From Streptomyces antibioticus (GTDB lineage Bacteria > Actinomycetota > Actinomycetes > Streptomycetales > Streptomycetaceae): a DNA stretch of 64,000 bases. Positions 45,627 through 51,455 of the stretch are shown here, in pieces. The stretch's first letter is position 1, and every line of letters begins with the position of its first letter. The stretch is taken from the NCBI RefSeq assembly GCF_001514065.1, contig NZ_KQ948422.1, positions 682,001 through 746,000 of the forward strand, in the 5' to 3' direction. The notes under the pieces were generated by a model. It was not told where the DNA came from, ran no database searches, and saw only the letters and a program-made list of their open reading frames with translations. Both the position numbers and the translations under genes were made by a program.

Positions 45627-47660
45627 ATGATTCCCAAGTTGTCCTTGCACAGCCCTCGTTGGCTCGACTTCGATGGGGTGACAGCCGAGGAGGTGAAAGC
45701 GCTCCAGGAGCAGATGGCATCCACAGCTGGCACCGGCACCGGCGATGAATGGCGGCAGGCCTGGACGTACATGGCCGAAGGCCTGATGGATGACGGCGTC
45801 GTGTCCGAAGGGGCCTACGCGGCCCTGCCACATCTCGTCGAAACGGCAGCGGCTCTGCCGCCGGAACGGTCCGTGGATTTCTGGGTGGACCTGGGATTCA
45901 TTGTGACCGCGGATTACAGGCCTCCCGTCCCGGGGGATCTCGAGGCGGGGTTCAACGCCGCACTGCATCTGGCGGGGCGGGCGGCCTTGCAAAGCCTCTT
46001 TGCCGCGAACGCTCCCCCGGAGGTCTGCGCCCACCTCGCGCTCTCCTGCGTGGCCTTCGCCGGCCACCACATGGGCGAAGCGCTGAGGCGGCTTGTCGAA
46101 CCCAAGGAGAGCGGCCTCCTGCTGATCTGTCCCGGGTGCGAGAGTGACACCGAGATCCCCGACTTCTTTGTGGACCCGGTGTGTCCGGCTTTCGACGCCC
46201 CGGATCCTTTTGAGCCCATCCATGTCCGCCAGGGAGATCACCCGTGGGGCGAGGTGGCTGCTGCATTGCGGGAGGAGGCGCTCGGGCAGGGGTGGGAGCC
46301 GTTCGTACGGGTGGCACGCCGAGTCGCGGAGGCGGGACTACCCTCGGAAGCACCGGGCCAGGCCGTTCTGTGCTTGGCCGCCGGTACGGTCGCGATCACG
46401 GCCAGCCCGCCACAAGCGGGGAGAGAATGGGCCCGCGAACTGATGATGCTCACCGGGTACTTCCGCTGCTGGGACTGCGAGCGGACATGGACGATCGCAG
46501 ACGGGCTGGCAGTGAACCCCGCTGGAGCGCACCCCCAGAGCCACGTAACGACAACGGCTGCGGACTCCGACGGGCCGACTGCCACGCTGGCCTCTGCGGC
46601 GGCCGACCAACCGCATGAAGCGGCGCCCCGGTTCCGACAGGACGGCAACGCTCTGCCCGCGGGCGACGGCTCCTCCTGGGGCCACCTCTCGGTGTTCTCG
46701 AATTCCGAGGTCGGCGCGGCCGGGGGTGTCGACGCCCTGACGGTGGTGCCCCGCCCGGGTCAGCCAACCCTCGTGGCGGGAGGCGGAGACAGGGGCGTGG
46801 TGTGCCTGTGGAGCGTGGCCGACGGCCGACTCGTCCATGAACCACTGCTGGGGCATCATGACCGCATCCGCTCGATGACCGCTCTGACCCTGCGCGATGG
46901 CAGCACCCTTCTGGCGAGCGGAGGCGACAGCGGGACCATCGCCCTGTGGAATCCGCTCACAGGGCAGCCGGTTCGCGAACCGGCAGGCAACTGGCCCGGC
47001 GGAGTCACCGGAATGTGTACGGTGACCGTCCCCAGCGGTCGGATCCTGCTCGTCACCGCCACCCCCCGCGGCGCAGTCCGGTTGTGGGACCCACTCACCG
47101 GTGATCCCGTCGGACGCCTCAACCCTTATGGCAGTCCGATCCAGTCGATCACCGCTGTCCCGATCTCCGCCGACCACACGCTGATCGCGGCCGCCGACAT
47201 GGGGGGCCGCGTTCACGTGTGGGATCCGGCCGTCGACGATCCCTGGGAACGAGGCGCGGCCGTCCAGTTGAACGCACCATCACTCAAAGGCGCCGACCAT
47301 CGTGTGACAACTGTGGCGGCCGTTCCCACACCTCACGGAGCGGTTCTGGCCACCGGAGACAACCTCGGCATGGTCATGCTGTGGGACCTTGCCACCGGTG
47401 CCCCGATCGGCGAGCGTCTGCCGGCCTCGACAGGCACCGCCGGCCTACCGGTCATCACCGGCGCCACCCTGCCCGACGGCCGCACGGTCCTGGTCACCGG
47501 CAGCAAGAGCGGGCACAGACTGCGGATATGGGAACCAGAATCCGGAGCGGTGCGGCTCATCGCCCTGGACGCGACGCTGACCTGCCTGGCCACGGCAGGC
47601 ACAGAACTGATCGTCGGACATGACCGCGGAGTCCTCAAACTCCCGCTCGCCAGACAATGA
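45627..47660 (+). CDS. WD40-repeat protein with a Cys-containing N-terminal domain
   Basis: A 677-aa protein. Residues about 1-300 form an unrecognised helical domain with two CxxC pairs: LLLICPGCESDTEI and YFRCWDCERTW, which may bind one zinc. A low-complexity linker follows (TTTAADSDGPTATLASAAAD). Residues about 350-677 contain WD40-like blades (VVCLWSVADGRLV, TIALWNPLTGQPV, AVRLWDPLTGDPV, RVHVWDPAVDD, MVMLWDLATGAPI, RLRIWEPESGAV). ATG 45627 is chosen because the domain begins there; the frame is open to 45315. It is a single gene ending at a strong hairpin. The role is unknown, probably a protein-interaction scaffold. Confidence 0.8.
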   Translation: MIPKLSLHSPRWLDFDGVTAEEVKALQEQMASTAGTGTGDEWRQAWTYMAEGLMDDGVVSEGAYAALPHLVETAAALPPERSVDFWVDLGFIVTADYRPPVPGDLEAGFNAALHLAGRAALQSLFAANAPPEVCAHLALSCVAFAGHHMGEALRRLVEPKESGLLLICPGCESDTEIPDFFVDPVCPAFDAPDPFEPIHVRQGDHPWGEVAAALREEALGQGWEPFVRVARRVAEAGLPSEAPGQAVLCLAAGTVAITASPPQAGREWARELMMLTGYFRCWDCERTWTIADGLAVNPAGAHPQSHVTTTAADSDGPTATLASAAADQPHEAAPRFRQDGNALPAGDGSSWGHLSVFSNSEVGAAGGVDALTVVPRPGQPTLVAGGGDRGVVCLWSVADGRLVHEPLLGHHDRIRSMTALTLRDGSTLLASGGDSGTIALWNPLTGQPVREPAGNWPGGVTGMCTVTVPSGRILLVTATPRGAVRLWDPLTGDPVGRLNPYGSPIQSITAVPISADHTLIAAADMGGRVHVWDPAVDDPWERGAAVQLNAPSLKGADHRVTTVAAVPTPHGAVLATGDNLGMVMLWDLATGAPIGERLPASTGTAGLPVITGATLPDGRTVLVTGSKSGHRLRIWEPESGAVRLIALDATLTCLATAGTELIVGHDRGVLKLPLARQ

Positions 47661-47833: not shown

Positions 47834-49264
47834 TCAGTCCGTCACGCGGAAGGTGGCGTCACTGCGGGCTGTCGCGGTGGTGATCGGGTCGAGGCGCAGT
47901 TGGTAGGCGTAGTGGCGGATGTAGCGGTCGGGGAAGTTGTACGACTGGAACGACGACCAGGTGGCGTCGGCGAGGCCGTCGACCTTGCGGAAGGTTGCGT
48001 CCGCGGCGAACCGGCTGCTGCCGTCGTTGCGGACGAGCTGGAAGTCGTAGTTGGCGTGGCGCAGGAAGTAGCCGGGGTAGTTCACCGACTCGAAGGAGAC
48101 GGTGCCGGTGCCCACCAGGCCGGGCCTGATGCGGAACTTGGCGTCGTCGCTGGTGACGTTCTGGTCGATGCGCACGTCGAAGTCGGCGTGCCGCACGTAC
48201 CGGTCCTGGAAGTTGAACGACTGGAGCCGCTGGGCGGGGGTGTTGACGTACCGGGCGAGGACCCGGGCTTCCTCGGCTGCGGTGAGGTTCAGGATCGAGC
48301 CGTGACGCTTCTTGTCGACGCCCATGTTGTAGCTGCCCGATGCCGGGAGCTGGTAGGTGCCGACGGCGGCGGGGTTGGTCGTCCTGACCGGCATGTACCC
48401 GCGCCCTGTGGCGTACTGGTCGAGGTACAGGGTCCACTCGTCACGGTCGCGGAACTTCATCCACATCGGGCCCTCCACCTGGGCGCCGGTCAGACCGATG
48501 CCGGAGAGGTTGCCGAGGGTCGTCCAGGTACCGAGGATCGAGTTGCTGCCCTCGAGGGTGATCTGCCCGTCACCGGAGGCGCGTACGTAGCGGTAGTCGC
48601 CGACTCCGGAGGGCACCTCGACGATCTGCGTGTCGATGAGTTCCTGGGCGCCCGGGCGGTCGATGTAGATCTGCGGGGTGGTGATGGTGCGGAAGTCGCT
48701 GGTGCGGGCGTAGAAGACGCGGTGCTTCGTCTTGCCGTTGAGGGGCACGTTCGTCGACCAGTACAGGACGTAGTCGTTGGTCTCGGGGTTCCAGATCGCC
48801 TCCGGCGCCCAGGCGTTGCGTCCGTCGGGGATCGCGCCGGCGACGTTGAGCAGCCACGGCTCCGACCAGCTGACGAGGTCCGTGGATTCCCACACCACGA
48901 TGTTGCGGCTGCCGTTGTTGATGGAGGCGTTCCAGTCCTGCCCGCAGCTGATGCACAGGTCGGTCGCGATGATCCAGTACTTGCTGCCGTCGGGCGAGCG
49001 CACCAGTGCGGGGTCGCGCACCCCCTTCGTGCCGATCGTGGAGCGCAGGATCGGAGCTCCGCCGTTGAGGTCGTTCCAGTGCAGGCCGTCCGCGCTGTGC
49101 GCGAGGTACATCTGCTGACCGCCGGACCCCTCACCGGTGAAGTGCAGCATCAGATAGCCCGGGTCGGCGGCGGCCGCCCGCTGAGGTGCGGCCAGGGACT
49201 GGGAGGTGAAGAAAAGGCCGACGGCGAGGAATATCGCCGCGAGCCGGGTGAGCAGTCTTGCCAT
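47834..49264 (-). CDS. secreted GH43-type glycoside hydrolase with C-terminal AbfB domain
   Basis: A 476-aa secreted enzyme. The N-terminus MARLLTRLAAIFLAVGLFF up to AAAADP is a Sec signal peptide. The five-bladed GH43-like domain includes GVRDPALVRSPDG, AWAPEAIWNPETNDYVLYWS and QVEGPMWMKF, which hold the Asp/Glu residues of the family. The C-terminal 150 residues are an AbfB (CBM42-type) arabinofuranose-binding domain with the repeated pattern SFNFQDRYVRHADFDVRID, SVNYPGYFLRHANYDFQLV and SYNFPDRYIRHYAYQLRLD. It probably releases arabinose or related sugars from plant arabinan/arabinoxylan. It is divergent from the sigma/AbfB fusion gene, which carries the same binding domain. Confidence 0.88.
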   Translation of the reverse strand: MARLLTRLAAIFLAVGLFFTSQSLAAPQRAAAADPGYLMLHFTGEGSGGQQMYLAHSADGLHWNDLNGGAPILRSTIGTKGVRDPALVRSPDGSKYWIIATDLCISCGQDWNASINNGSRNIVVWESTDLVSWSEPWLLNVAGAIPDGRNAWAPEAIWNPETNDYVLYWSTNVPLNGKTKHRVFYARTSDFRTITTPQIYIDRPGAQELIDTQIVEVPSGVGDYRYVRASGDGQITLEGSNSILGTWTTLGNLSGIGLTGAQVEGPMWMKFRDRDEWTLYLDQYATGRGYMPVRTTNPAAVGTYQLPASGSYNMGVDKKRHGSILNLTAAEEARVLARYVNTPAQRLQSFNFQDRYVRHADFDVRIDQNVTSDDAKFRIRPGLVGTGTVSFESVNYPGYFLRHANYDFQLVRNDGSSRFAADATFRKVDGLADATWSSFQSYNFPDRYIRHYAYQLRLDPITTATARSDATFRVTD

Positions 49265-49865
49265 GTGCGTGTCCTGTCTCTGTTGCGGGTGCCGGGACGG
49301 GGGGAAGCGGGGTGCGGGACACGTGACCACGAAAGCCACGGGGGACAGCCGCGGATTCAGCAGCGTGGTGGTGGCTGACTGCGCGACGGCAGTGGCCTTC
49401 CCCGTCGTGGCCGTCGCGCCGCCGGAAAGGACGGTGCGTGCCTTCGTCTCGGCGAAGGGCCGGCGGACGATCGGTGCACGCCGGCGGAGGCGGGAGCAGC
49501 GCTCATGACAGAGACATCCTTGTTTCACGTCGCGGAGCGGAAGCGGGTCGTCAAGAGGGGGCCAGCAGGGCCTAATTGTTCGGTCTGTCGGACATCGTTC
49601 GTGAATTCGGCCAAAAGTTAGAGCTGGGTAAAAGCGAGTGTCAAGAGGGGCGAAAGCAGCAAAGCAGTGGTGCCTCCCTTCCGTGCTCGGGACGGGGCCG
49701 TGCGCATCAGGAGACGCGTCGGCGCGTCGCGCATAACGAAAAACCCGGGACGGACGAAAACGCGGGGCAGCCTCCGGGCCGCGACCCGACACGCGTCCTC
49801 CGGACTCGCTCCTGGCACACTGTCGCCTCGACACATCGGCAGGACCACGGAACGGGTGGGCAGGG
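49265..49865. promoter_or_regulatory. 601-nt divergent promoter region between GH43-AbfB and sigma-AbfB genes
   Basis: No gene is seen. This stretch must hold the promoters of both genes. An AT-richer part lies around 49560-49660, containing TTCGGTCTGTCGGACATCG and GAATTCGGCC. I could not identify a convincing ECF-type -35/-10 pair by eye. A minus-strand ORF here has poor coding quality. Motif comparison with other AbfB/GH43 promoters would be needed. Confidence 0.4.
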
Positions 49866-51455
49866 GTGCGCTCGCGGAACAGGCAGGAACAACCGGACGT
49901 CGCCGTCGTCGAGGCGGCGCGGACCGGGGACGCGCAGGCCGCGGAACAGCTGGTACGGGACTGCCTGCCGTTGGTCTACAACATCGTCGGACGGGCGCTG
50001 GACGGGCACAGCGATGTCGACGACGTGGTCCAGGAGACGATGGTGCGGGTCCTGGACGGATTGCCCGGACTGGAGCGACCGGACCGGTTCCGGTCCTGGC
50101 TCGTCGCCATCACCGTGCGACAGATCCGTGACCGGTGGCGCAGAGGGCGCACCCAGGTCGCCGCGGACCCCCTGGAGGAGAACGCCCATCAAGCGGACCC
50201 ACAGGCCGACTTCGCCGATCTGGCGATCCTTCGGCTCGCGCTGTCGGGCCAGCGGCGCGAAGCGGTGGAGGCCGCCCGCTGGCTGGAGGACGAGGAACGC
50301 GAAGTACTCGCACTGTGGTGGATGGAGAGCGCGGGCGAACTGACCCGCGGCGAACTCTCGACCGCCTGCGACCTCACACCGCAGCACGCGGCGGTCCGGG
50401 TCCAACGGGTCAAGGAGCGGTTGGAGACGGCGCGCACCGTCGTACGGGCCGTGACGGCCTCGCCGCGCTGCCCCGACCTGGCCGTCGTCCTCGCCTCATG
50501 GGACGGGCGCCCGTCCGGACTGTGGCGCAAGCGGCTGGCCCGCCATGTCCGCGACTGTCCGCAGTGCCTGTCCAACTCCTCCGACCTGATACCGGCGGAG
50601 GGGCTCTTGGCCGACCTCGCACTGGTGCCGGTGCCGGTCGCCCTGACCGGCCTGGTGCTGGCCAGGACGCTGGGGCAAGGCTCCGCAGGAGCAACCACAA
50701 GCGCGAGCACGAGCACGCATACGGCGAGTGGTGCGAGCCGTGCGGCGCGGACGCTCGGCAAGCTGGCCGCCAAGCCCGCGGCGGCCGCAGCCGCAGGGGC
50801 CGTCACGCTGGCGGCTGCCGGTACGGCCTGGTATGCCGCCACGGCATCGCACGAGCAGACCGCACCGCCCGCCGCCGTGGCCCCGCCGGCGCCCACCCCC
50901 TCGTCCGTGCCACCGAAACCGTCCGCCTCCCCCACGGCAAGTCCGACACCGGTGTCGACACCGACACCGACCTCCACATCGACGCCGACAGCATCCCCGG
51001 CGACGACCGCCGACGCACGGATTTCGGGGCGGCACGCCCTGCGTTCCGTCGACAGCCCGGGCGCCTACGTGAGCCAGTCCGCCTCACTGGGCGTCCTCGG
51101 CCCGGTCGGCGCCGACAGCTCCGCGTCCACCCGCCAGGCGGCCACCTTCACCTTCGTCCCCGGCCTGGCCGACCCCCGCTGCTACTCCCTCAGGGACGCC
51201 ACGGGCAGGTACCTGCGGCACTACGCCTTCCGCATCCGGCTGGACCTCAACGACGGATCCGCCATCTTCCGCAAGGACACCACCTTCTGCCCCCGTTCCG
51301 GTTCCACGGCCGGTTCGGTCGCCCTGGAGTCGTACAACTACCCCGGCCGTTACCTCCGCCACCGGGACAACCTCCAACTGTGGCTCGACCGTTCAGGGAA
51401 CACGGCCTCCGACCGGGCCAGCCGCTCCTTCGTCGTCGTGGCGCCCTGGACCTGA
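49866..51455 (+). CDS. ECF sigma factor fused to anti-sigma zinc motif, membrane segment and external AbfB domain
   Basis: A 529-aa chain of four parts. Residues 28-95 are sigma region 2 (LVRDCLPLVYNIVGRALDG, RPDRFRSWLVAITVRQIRDRW) and 128-195 region 4 (ELTRGELSTACDLTPQHAAV). H227-x3-C231-x2-C234 (RHVRDCPQC) is the zinc motif of anti-sigma (ZAS) domains. An Ala-rich hydrophobic stretch at about 304-325 is the likely membrane anchor, followed by a Pro/Ser/Thr linker (331-383) as in surface proteins. Residues 388-525 are an AbfB domain (DATGRYLRHYAFRIRLDLND, YNYPGRYLRHRDNLQLW). The topology puts the sigma part inside and the sugar-binding part outside. The gene is divergent from the secreted GH43-AbfB enzyme. 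Sigma/anti-sigma fusions are known in Actinobacteria; release of sigma (proteolysis or conformational change) is inferred. GTG 49866 follows GGTGGGCAGGG. Confidence 0.85.
   Translation: MRSRNRQEQPDVAVVEAARTGDAQAAEQLVRDCLPLVYNIVGRALDGHSDVDDVVQETMVRVLDGLPGLERPDRFRSWLVAITVRQIRDRWRRGRTQVAADPLEENAHQADPQADFADLAILRLALSGQRREAVEAARWLEDEEREVLALWWMESAGELTRGELSTACDLTPQHAAVRVQRVKERLETARTVVRAVTASPRCPDLAVVLASWDGRPSGLWRKRLARHVRDCPQCLSNSSDLIPAEGLLADLALVPVPVALTGLVLARTLGQGSAGATTSASTSTHTASGASRAARTLGKLAAKPAAAAAAGAVTLAAAGTAWYAATASHEQTAPPAAVAPPAPTPSSVPPKPSASPTASPTPVSTPTPTSTSTPTASPATTADARISGRHALRSVDSPGAYVSQSASLGVLGPVGADSSASTRQAATFTFVPGLADPRCYSLRDATGRYLRHYAFRIRLDLNDGSAIFRKDTTFCPRSGSTAGSVALESYNYPGRYLRHRDNLQLWLDRSGNTASDRASRSFVVVAPWT

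What the first reader, a model, noticed from the sequence alone, without database searches (positions are those of the whole stretch)
47834..51455. One-chain sigma factor / anti-sigma / membrane anchor / AbfB sugar sensor, divergent from a secreted GH43-AbfB enzyme
The protein at 49866-51455 joins ECF sigma regions 2 and 4, a ZAS-type H-x3-C-x2-C motif, a membrane segment, a Pro/Ser/Thr linker and an external AbfB domain. The neighbouring secreted glycosidase has the same binding domain. The simplest model: the AbfB domain senses arabinofuranosyl polymer outside, and the sigma part, held at the membrane, is activated to transcribe the enzyme gene and itself. Sigma/anti-sigma fusions are known in Actinobacteria, but I know of no described mechanism for this AbfB arrangement. 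Domain order is seen in the sequence, function is inference.
Basis: partly seen in the sequence, partly recalled or inferred. Interest (0 to 1): 0.85.

Follow-up and report, generated by a model that had tools for sequence, protein, structure and literature searches.

The report
One-protein sugar sensor and gene switch
A soil bacterium's membrane protein appears to carry an arabinose-polymer binding domain outside and a gene-activating factor inside; a shared promoter signature in many relatives suggests that it switches on genes for enzymes that digest arabinose-rich plant polymers, though none of this has been tested in the laboratory.

Summary
49866-51455 (+) encodes one chain: ECF sigma-2/sigma-4, an invariant C-x24-H-x3-C-x2-C motif, a predicted membrane helix, a Pro/Ser/Thr linker and an AbfB domain. 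It is divergent from a secreted GH43-like/AbfB enzyme. This general build is published (ECF52/ECF53), and an AbfB/CBM42 sensor on a separate anti-sigma factor is known (RsgI5): a new variant of a known kind.

What is added: (1) the sigma-to-membrane part carries different outer domains (CAP, AbfB, a GH core, beta-helix, Lcl_C). AbfB forms, unlike CAP forms, often lie beside glycan-degrading genes (21 of 33 loci versus 2 of 109). (2) A promoter-like motif, GTTAT-N15/16-(C)GTCTCC, precedes the sigma gene in most CAP members. In the Streptomyces AbfB branch it points away from the sigma gene, mostly at the divergent enzyme, and recurs before unlinked glycan genes. The window's genome has two exact sites, one before this GH43-like gene and one in a GH127/GH43-like/GH54 cluster. 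(3) Sensor AbfB domains keep one sugar pocket (35 of 35); the second pocket's Asp is kept in 2 of 35, versus 21 of 22 enzyme domains.

Self-activation is not supported. Ligand, proteolytic release and transcription are inference.

The parts
49866..51455 (+). gene of the sigma / zinc anti-sigma-like / membrane / AbfB protein (529 aa)
49950..50150 (+). sigma-70 region 2 (residues 29-95)
   Evidence: Pfam PF04542 5e-15
50211..50456 (+). sigma-4 region (about residues 116-197)
   Evidence: TIGR02937 covers 25-188; predicted helices; several PDB ECF sigma hits of the family profile reach residue 186-188
50469..50567 (+). C202-x24-H227-x3-C231-x2-C234 zinc-type motif, anti-sigma-like
   Evidence: all four residues invariant in 50 sequences; that it binds zinc is inferred
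50775..50852 (+). predicted single membrane helix (about residues 304-329)
   Evidence: AlphaFold helix 304-329, modest confidence; positive-inside pattern in most family members; hydropathy 1.41 in this protein
51039..51437 (+). outer AbfB domain (residues 392-524): beta pocket His/Asp kept, gamma Asp replaced by Ser
   Evidence: PF05270 3e-42; PDB AbfB/CBM42 relatives including RsgI5
47834..49264 (-). divergent secreted GH43-like enzyme with C-terminal AbfB (476 aa), called GH43L here
47843..48229 (-). AbfB domain of GH43L
   Evidence: PF05270 6e-46
49710..49738 (-). family promoter-like motif CGTTAT-N16-CGTCTCC pointing at GH43L (445 bp before its ATG)
49615..49644 (-). housekeeping-like promoter TTGACA-N18-TAACTT pointing at GH43L, found in 11 of 12 aligned intergenic regions
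   Evidence: likeness to the housekeeping consensus is recalled
49577..49608 (-). operator-like repeat after the housekeeping-like -10; a similar sequence precedes LamG-bearing genes downstream of the sigma gene in L157, L159, L163 and L176
49809..49841 (+). conserved block just before the sigma gene, seen in Streptomyces AbfB members with or without GH43L; function unknown

Best explanation
This is a one-protein glycan-sensing sigma switch. The AbfB domain outside the cell binds arabinofuranosyl residues of plant arabinan, arabinoxylan or arabinogalactan. The zinc anti-sigma-like segment in the same chain keeps the sigma part inactive at the membrane. A ligand-dependent event, most likely regulated proteolysis as proposed for other fused membrane sigma factors, frees the sigma part. 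It then directs RNA polymerase to promoters of the form GTTAT-N15/16-(C)GTCTCC. In the window's genome these are the divergent GH43-like/AbfB gene and a second arabinan locus (GH127/GH43-like/GH54). Shown in sequence: domain order, zinc-type motif, motif conservation, genome-wide sites, linkage. Inferred: membrane insertion and topology, ligand, inhibition by the fused segment, proteolysis, and recognition of the motif by this sigma.
For: Domain anatomy. Linkage: homologues of 27 chosen glycan-related neighbours, counted only when the match came from another locus, lie within three genes in 21 of 33 AbfB loci versus 2 of 109 CAP loci. By annotation, 19 of 33 have an arabinosyl-type or AbfB enzyme and 26 of 33 any glycan-related enzyme within three genes (my tally). 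Motif: exact GTTA[TC]-N15..17-CGTCT has 43 hits in the 400 bp before the sigma gene of 169 unique loci and 5 elsewhere in 5.17 Mb of strand, all 5 just before and in the sense of glycan-degrading genes (names). A weight matrix from 26 non-AbfB sites exceeds the 99th percentile of 938 random windows in 95 of 108 CAP members toward the sigma gene (21 were training sites) and in 15 of 34 AbfB members pointing away from it: 12 toward GH43L or its fragment, 1 toward an alginate-lyase-family gene (L170), 2 with no GH43L left (L161, L174). Pattern search: 20 hits in 8 AbfB-carrier genomes, reversed control 0; 7 hits in 20 genomes without the family (control 2), none with TGTTATC; 17 hits in 20 genomes with one non-AbfB member (control 4), 14 immediately before that member. 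The strict form occurs in 6 of 392 Streptomyces genomes; each of the 6 has an AbfB-branch sigma gene beside it (sigma part 81-86% identical to the window's). Own genome: exactly 2 pattern hits, this locus and one beside a GH127 gene in an AbfB-rich cluster. In L155 the motif, but not the housekeeping-like promoter, remains between the two genes.
Against: No binding, proteolysis or transcription data. GH43L also has a conserved housekeeping-like promoter and operator-like repeat. The motif ends 445 bp before the GH43L start codon in the window. Nineteen of 34 AbfB members have no scoring site pointing away from the sigma gene within 250 bp (one of them, L175, has it at 313 bp), and 7 of 33 lack any recognised glycan neighbour. 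Sixteen of 108 CAP members also score in the opposite direction, most of them with no site in their own direction, and their divergent genes do not look like glycan enzymes by eye; so a motif pointing away from the sigma gene is not peculiar to sugar-sensing members. The window's genome lacks the strict form of the motif, and two other AbfB carriers (G189, G379) have no motif at their sigma locus. Genomes can hold other family members that may read the same motif; the window's has a second one. The 27 query enzymes in the linkage test were picked from AbfB loci, which favours AbfB loci; loci are related, so counts are not independent. One of the 20 carrier hits lies before a transporter-like gene (L266), and seven lie before a ~700-aa secreted protein of unknown function, not a proven enzyme. 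The membrane helix has low hydropathy in this protein.
Confidence: 0.6

Rival explanations
1. GH43L is controlled by the housekeeping-like promoter and a repressor at the operator-like repeat; the AbfB sigma serves other genes and sits beside GH43L by shared inheritance or hitch-hiking within glycan islands.
For: Conserved TTGAC[AT]-N17/18-TAACTT and operator-like repeat before GH43L and a similar repeat before LamG-bearing genes; AbfB members without GH43L exist, among them L154.
Against: The family motif stays next to GH43L even when that gene is 4.6 or 7.6 kb from the sigma gene (L162, L171) and before second GH43L copies away from any sigma gene in the fetched stretch (L232, L233, L243); L155 keeps only the motif; its distance to the housekeeping-like promoter varies from 14 to 76 bp in 9 loci.
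Confidence: 0.2
2. The AbfB domain only tethers the protein or cell to plant polymer; the sigma part is controlled by another input such as phosphorylation or redox loss of zinc.
For: SCO4117, an ECF52 protein of similar build, is reported phosphorylated (passages of PMC5826349); zinc motifs can be redox sensors (recalled); sensor AbfB has one intact pocket, so binding may be weak.
Against: Outer domains are exchanged with neighbours that fit: GH catalytic core beside thaumatin-family genes in L054 and L150, Pel9A-like beta-helix beside pectate lyase and pectinesterase in L152, which favours a sensing role.
Confidence: 0.14
3. The motif is read by another sigma factor or by a transcription activator that happens to occur in the same genomes.
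For: Motif recognition was inferred only from co-occurrence; other family members share the motif, and some CAP members have it on the other strand.
Against: Fourteen of 17 hits in the 20 genomes with one non-AbfB member sit immediately before that member; 0 of 7 hits in family-free genomes have the TGTTATC half; two short boxes at fixed spacing with a CGTC-type -10 resemble ECF promoters (recalled).
Confidence: 0.12

Closest known systems
ECF52 sigma factors (SCO4117, Streptomyces coelicolor)
   Same: One chain: ECF sigma, zinc finger, membrane helix, Pro-rich stretch, outer carbohydrate-binding domain; proteolytic activation proposed (abstract and passages of PMC5826349, passages of PMC8999054).
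   Different: SCO4117 has a smart00776 module, affects development and secondary metabolism, and has a proposed motif CSGYN-17bps-SRHA; here AbfB, glycan enzyme neighbours and GTTAT-N15/16-(C)GTCTCC.
ECF53 sigma factors
   Same: Actinobacterial fusions with zinc finger and membrane helix; some ECF52/ECF53 members predicted to carry glycosyl hydrolase or carbohydrate-binding domains (passages of PMC8999054, PMC10766802). Probably the group of this family.
   Different: No reference ECF53 sequence could be compared here, and the three classification papers looked up were not held; no AbfB, neighbour or promoter data for ECF53 appeared in the passages seen.
SigI/RsgI, especially RsgI5 of Clostridium thermocellum
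   Same: An AbfB/CBM42 domain outside, anti-sigma inside; SigI factors serve polysaccharide-degrading genes (RsgI5 listed as RsgI_N-UNK-CBM42 in passages of PMC4711584; PDB 9fnk matches the window's AbfB at 1.4e-16).
   Different: Two proteins, SigI-type sigma and RsgI_N domain, autoproteolysis (a title in a reference list) and RseP cleavage (start of the abstract of PMC12203970); here one ECF-type chain with a zinc-type motif.
IutY (Pseudomonas putida, ECF243)
   Same: Sigma and anti-sigma fused in one membrane protein, freed by Prc and RseP (passage of PMC8999054).
   Different: Iron-siderophore signal; no sugar-binding domain is mentioned in the passage.

Membership tests
ECF sigma factor | sigma-2 and sigma-4 only | tested here: met
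   PF04542, TIGR02937 above its cut-off, PDB ECF hits, model
zinc anti-sigma (ZAS) domain | H-x3-C-x2-C with a fourth ligand about 25 residues before | tested here: met
   C-x24-H-x3-C-x2-C invariant in 50 sequences; first ligand is Cys. No Pfam anti-sigma hit; definition recalled
ZAS domain | inhibits the sigma and binds zinc | not testable with these tools
   pTM 0.49, so the domain arrangement is unsure
ECF53 | sequence match to the ECF53 group model | not testable with these tools
   no group model or reference sequence held; architecture agrees with the passages read
ECF52 | smart00776-type outer module, atrA-linked gene | tested here: not met
   outer domain is AbfB; the called neighbours of the window gene show no atrA-like gene by eye. 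The sigma part was not compared with SCO4117
AbfB / CBM42 domain | PF05270 above cut-off; arabinose-pocket His and Asp | tested here: met
   144 bits vs 22.8; beta pocket met, gamma Asp lost (residue roles recalled)
SigI/RsgI system | separate SigI and RsgI_N proteins | tested here: not met
   single chain, no RsgI_N hit in Pfam
Glycoside hydrolase 43 (neighbour) | PF04616 above gathering score | tested here: inconclusive
   20.3 vs 32.2 bits; NF052546 212 vs 500

The most novel reading that the evidence does not exclude
A whole actinobacterial family of one-chain sigma switches has evolved by exchanging the outer glycan-reading domain on a constant sigma/zinc/membrane core. In the sugar-reading branches the family's promoter has moved from the sigma gene to the enzymes for that glycan. 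Thus the ligand and regulon of an unknown member could be read from its outer domain plus the GTTAT-N15/16-GTCTCC sites of its genome.
Probability: 0.42. Interest if true: 0.8.

Novelty: new variant of a known kind. Interest (0 to 1): 0.62.

Why it matters
[quoted passage not shown] A promoter motif tied to the family, with one to four exact sites in each of the 8 AbfB-carrier genomes searched and most of them before glycan-related genes, makes ligand, promoter and regulon directly testable. It also gives a compact single-gene candidate for a polysaccharide-responsive switch and a way to predict what uncharacterised members sense.

Tried and rejected
Self-activation of the window's sigma gene by the family motif: rejected, score -4.2 in its own direction. 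The conserved block 1 (49809-49841) as a family promoter: no match to the motif; left unexplained. A relaxed pattern CGTTAT-N15..17-CGTCTC in 199 Streptomyces genomes hit 45 of them; most hits had no likeness in the spacer and were not followed. A first tblastn of GH43L used a frame-shifted translation; it was redone in the right frame and only those counts are used. One clade for AbfB members: the quick tree of 78 chosen proteins needs 3 changes, but starred branches force only 1, so single or repeated gain of AbfB is undecided. Fold comparison: best hits are ECF sigma factors with poor global fit; nothing on the zinc domain. A paper search with the motif letters listed 10 papers, none on this subject by title. 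Rows dropped before the linkage count: L166 (duplicate of L134), L164 (short contig), L177 and L172 (truncated sigma gene), L179b (split gene), leaving 33 of 38 loci. Single Pfam scans of AbfB neighbours covered 31 chosen proteins; all 129 neighbours within two genes were scanned, but that output shows only the 25 commonest families, so some tallies rest on likeness to a scanned member. The CAP control was 33 of 108 unique CAP loci and has the same 25-family limit. L134's third downstream gene looked GH36-like by eye and was not scanned or counted.
Full report
WHAT IS THERE. The gene at 49866-51455 (+) encodes 529 aa: sigma-2 (Pfam, residues 29-95), ECF sigma coverage to residue 188, and an AbfB domain at 392-524. 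In 50 relatives C202, H227, C231 and C234 are invariant, a C-x24-H-x3-C-x2-C zinc-type motif. AlphaFold (50 sequences, mean pLDDT 78.8, pTM 0.49) gives confident helices for sigma-2, most of sigma-4 and the segment to about residue 240, a weak stretch at about 250-310 and a helix at 304-329. That helix is the likely membrane anchor: the second hydrophobic segment has more Lys/Arg before than after it in 29 of 35 AbfB, 99 of 116 CAP, 6 of 7 hydrolase-core and 8 of 15 other members, but its hydropathy in the window protein is only 1.41. A first segment (247-265, 2.16, containing prolines) is more hydrophobic; I take it as part of the anti-sigma-like region, by inference. The divergent gene most likely starts at 49264 and ends at 47834: a secreted GH43-like enzyme with AbfB (here GH43L), GH43 score below cut-off.

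A FAMILY WITH EXCHANGEABLE OUTER DOMAINS. The sigma-to-membrane part (residues 1-330) has matches at E <= 1e-20 in 147 of 199 Streptomyces genomes and 36 of 394 genomes of the class, in 8 of 137 genera. From these searches and one capped scan of named genomes I collected 182 family proteins. Among 174 with a long tail, clusters of the outer part were: 116 CAP, 35 AbfB, 7 with a glycosyl-hydrolase catalytic core (PF11790), 6 of one unknown type and 10 singles, including two Pel9A-like beta-helices, one Lcl_C and the split AbfB gene L179b (duplicates included; clusters named from one or two scanned members, AbfB from a BLAST of all). AbfB members occur in Streptomyces, Catellatospora, Kineosporia, Hamadaea and Dactylosporangium. 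On a tree of 78 chosen proteins AbfB members need 3 changes, but one origin is not excluded. The window's own genome has one close paralogue (50% identity), with the hydrolase core, divergent from a thaumatin-family gene.

NEIGHBOURS FIT THE OUTER DOMAIN. GH43L orthologues lie within the fetched flank of 17 of 38 AbfB-type loci (counting the window, a fragment in L164 and copies near the truncated genes L172 and L177); in 12 they are divergent with a measurable intergenic region, though my gene caller put a short ORF between in L157 and L159. Other AbfB loci have different arabinosyl enzymes nearby: GH62 (L160, L180, L182), GH54 (L187, L205), GH51-like (L162, L173), GH127 (L176), a second GH43-AbfB gene (L157, L159, L163; a shortened one in L055), or pectin and other glycan genes (L168, L169, L170, L178, L181, L183). 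My tally within three genes is 19 of 33 with an arabinosyl-type or AbfB enzyme and 26 of 33 with any glycan-related enzyme; the 26 include loose cases (L156, a weak GH39 hit with ricin domain; L183, an esterase with CBM2). Seven of 33 have none (L154, L161, L056, L174, L134, L165, L194). As a control without annotation, homologues of 27 listed neighbours, counted only from other loci, occur within three genes in 21 of 33 AbfB loci and 2 of 109 CAP loci (Fisher 1e-14, not corrected for kinship; the 27 were picked from AbfB loci, which favours them). Pfam scans of 132 neighbours of 33 CAP loci showed no glycoside hydrolase family among the 25 commonest families, which reach down to 2 members; ricin-type domains were in 3. 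Among other members, hydrolase-core ones lie beside thaumatin genes in two genera (L054, L150; not seen for the others), and one of the two beta-helix members (L152) beside pectate lyase and pectinesterase.

A PROMOTER-LIKE MOTIF. Aligning 12 intergenic regions showed a block conserved in the GH43L direction, a housekeeping-like TTGACA-N18-TAACTT promoter followed by an operator-like repeat, and a separate block close to the sigma gene. The first block, CGTTATG-N15-CGTCTCC, proved to be a version of a family-wide motif. Exact GTTA[TC]-N15..17-CGTCT occurs 43 times in the 400 bp before the sigma gene of 169 unique loci, and 5 times in the remaining 5.17 Mb of strand; reversed sequence gave 4 in 5.30 Mb. 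So the 5 remote hits are at chance frequency in number, but all 5 lie 40-175 bp before, and in the sense of, a glycan-degrading gene: two GH43L, three of the alginate-lyase family. A matrix from 26 non-AbfB sites (TGTTATC and GTCTCC boxes; 21 CAP, 2 hydrolase-core, 3 others) exceeds the 99th percentile of 938 random windows in 95 of 108 CAP members toward the sigma gene. Among AbfB members it does so in 0 of 34 toward the sigma gene and 15 of 34 pointing away: 12 toward GH43L or its fragment, one toward an alginate-lyase-family gene (L170), and two in loci without GH43L (L161, L174). Hydrolase-core members score in 4 of 6 each way; two of the forward ones are training sites and the opposite hit of L149 is a simple repeat. 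Against a clean picture, 16 of 108 CAP members also score in the opposite direction, mostly a subgroup without a forward site whose divergent genes do not look like glycan enzymes by eye. My reading: ordinary members are self-activating, whereas the Streptomyces AbfB branch has kept the promoter only for the enzyme. L155 keeps the motif but not the housekeeping-like promoter.

GENOME-WIDE. YGTTATN-N14..16-GTCTCC gave 20 hits in 8 AbfB-carrier genomes (reversed control 0): 8 before GH43L copies, 1 before a GH43-ricin gene, 1 on the GH127 side of the window genome's second arabinan cluster (about 500 bp from the gene), 2 before alginate-lyase-type genes (one scanned, one by likeness), 7 before a ~700-aa secreted protein of unknown function (two scanned) that lies beside GH43-type genes where the contig allows, and 1 before a transporter-like gene. 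The GH43L sites led to the motif, so the independent set is the other 12. Twenty genomes without a family match had 7 hits (control 2), none with TGTTATC. Twenty genomes with a single family member (19 CAP, one with a broken tail) had 17 hits (control 4): 14 immediately before that member, one about 1 kb before it, two elsewhere. The strict form GTTATG-N14..16-CGTCTCCTGT occurs in 6 of 392 Streptomyces genomes, each with an AbfB-branch sigma gene beside it; the window's genome and the carriers G189 and G379 lack it. G379, where one search found one family member only, the AbfB type and without GH43L in the fetched flank, still has the motif before the ~700-aa gene.

THE SENSOR DOMAIN DIFFERS FROM THE ENZYME DOMAIN. 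AbfB has two arabinose pockets each using a His and an Asp (roles recalled from the Aspergillus enzyme). Sensor domains keep the beta pair in 35 of 35; the gamma Asp is kept in 2 of 35 (L161, L182; two more have Glu) and the gamma His in 27 of 35. AbfB domains of neighbouring enzymes keep the gamma His in 22 of 22 and the gamma Asp in 21 of 22, the last being cut by a contig end; 17 of these 22 are GH43L orthologues. The loss is seen in Streptomyces and in Micromonosporaceae members, so sensors may bind one residue at a time.

KNOWN OR NEW. One-chain sigma/zinc/membrane/sugar-domain proteins are published as ECF52 and ECF53, with proteolytic activation proposed (passages of PMC8999054, PMC5826349, PMC10766802). 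RsgI5 carries the same kind of outer domain on a separate anti-sigma factor (passages of PMC4711584; PDB 9fnk). Three classification papers I looked up are not held, so the ECF53 assignment and any published ECF53 motif could not be checked. Paper searches naming AbfB or CBM42 with sigma factors and the motif letters listed no description of this arrangement that I could see in titles and abstract starts; they cover only the held open-access library, and only the top of the list. I therefore file it as a new variant of a known kind: the AbfB version, its enzyme pairing, the family motif and the apparent loss of self-activation are what this work adds.

LIMITS. Counts come from related genomes and are not independent. 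Which family member reads which motif site is unresolved where several occur. Ligand, topology, inhibition, proteolysis and transcription are untested.

Noticed in passing
window genome C11:159168-159725 (L003:1267-2115): A 282-aa protein with one hydrophobic segment, linker and AbfB domain but no sigma part; perhaps a membrane-anchored AbfB protein, role unknown.
   Followed up: no
49577-49608 (-) and upstream of LamG-bearing genes in L157, L159, L163, L176: Conserved operator-like repeat (around GTTCGAnnTnTCGGACATTGTTCG) beside housekeeping-like promoters of different enzyme genes; the regulator is unknown.
   Followed up: partly
L265:6930-9047, L267:7113-9191 and orthologues: A ~700-aa secreted protein with only a weak PATR-repeat hit has the family motif immediately before it in 7 of 8 AbfB-carrier genomes searched.
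   Followed up: partly
L173:6535-8451 (-): A second family member with an Lcl_C outer domain lies divergent from a sigma-AbfB gene, with GH51-type and LacI-like genes nearby; L178 has a shorter Lcl_C-type gene in the same place.
   Followed up: no
L150:4088-8231: Two family members with hydrolase-core sensors in tandem, divergent from a thaumatin-family gene.
   Followed up: no
L131, L096, L123: Family members with an outer domain that matched no Pfam family (L131 scanned); L131 and L096 lie beside alginate-lyase-family genes preceded by the family motif.
   Followed up: partly
L215, L225, L227, L069, L074, L105 and relatives: A CAP subgroup has the motif (weaker form, ending GGTCAAC) on the strand away from the sigma gene and none toward it; the divergent genes were not scanned.
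   Followed up: partly
45627-47657 (+): WD40-repeat protein with a long N-terminal part, unrelated to the finding.
   Followed up: no
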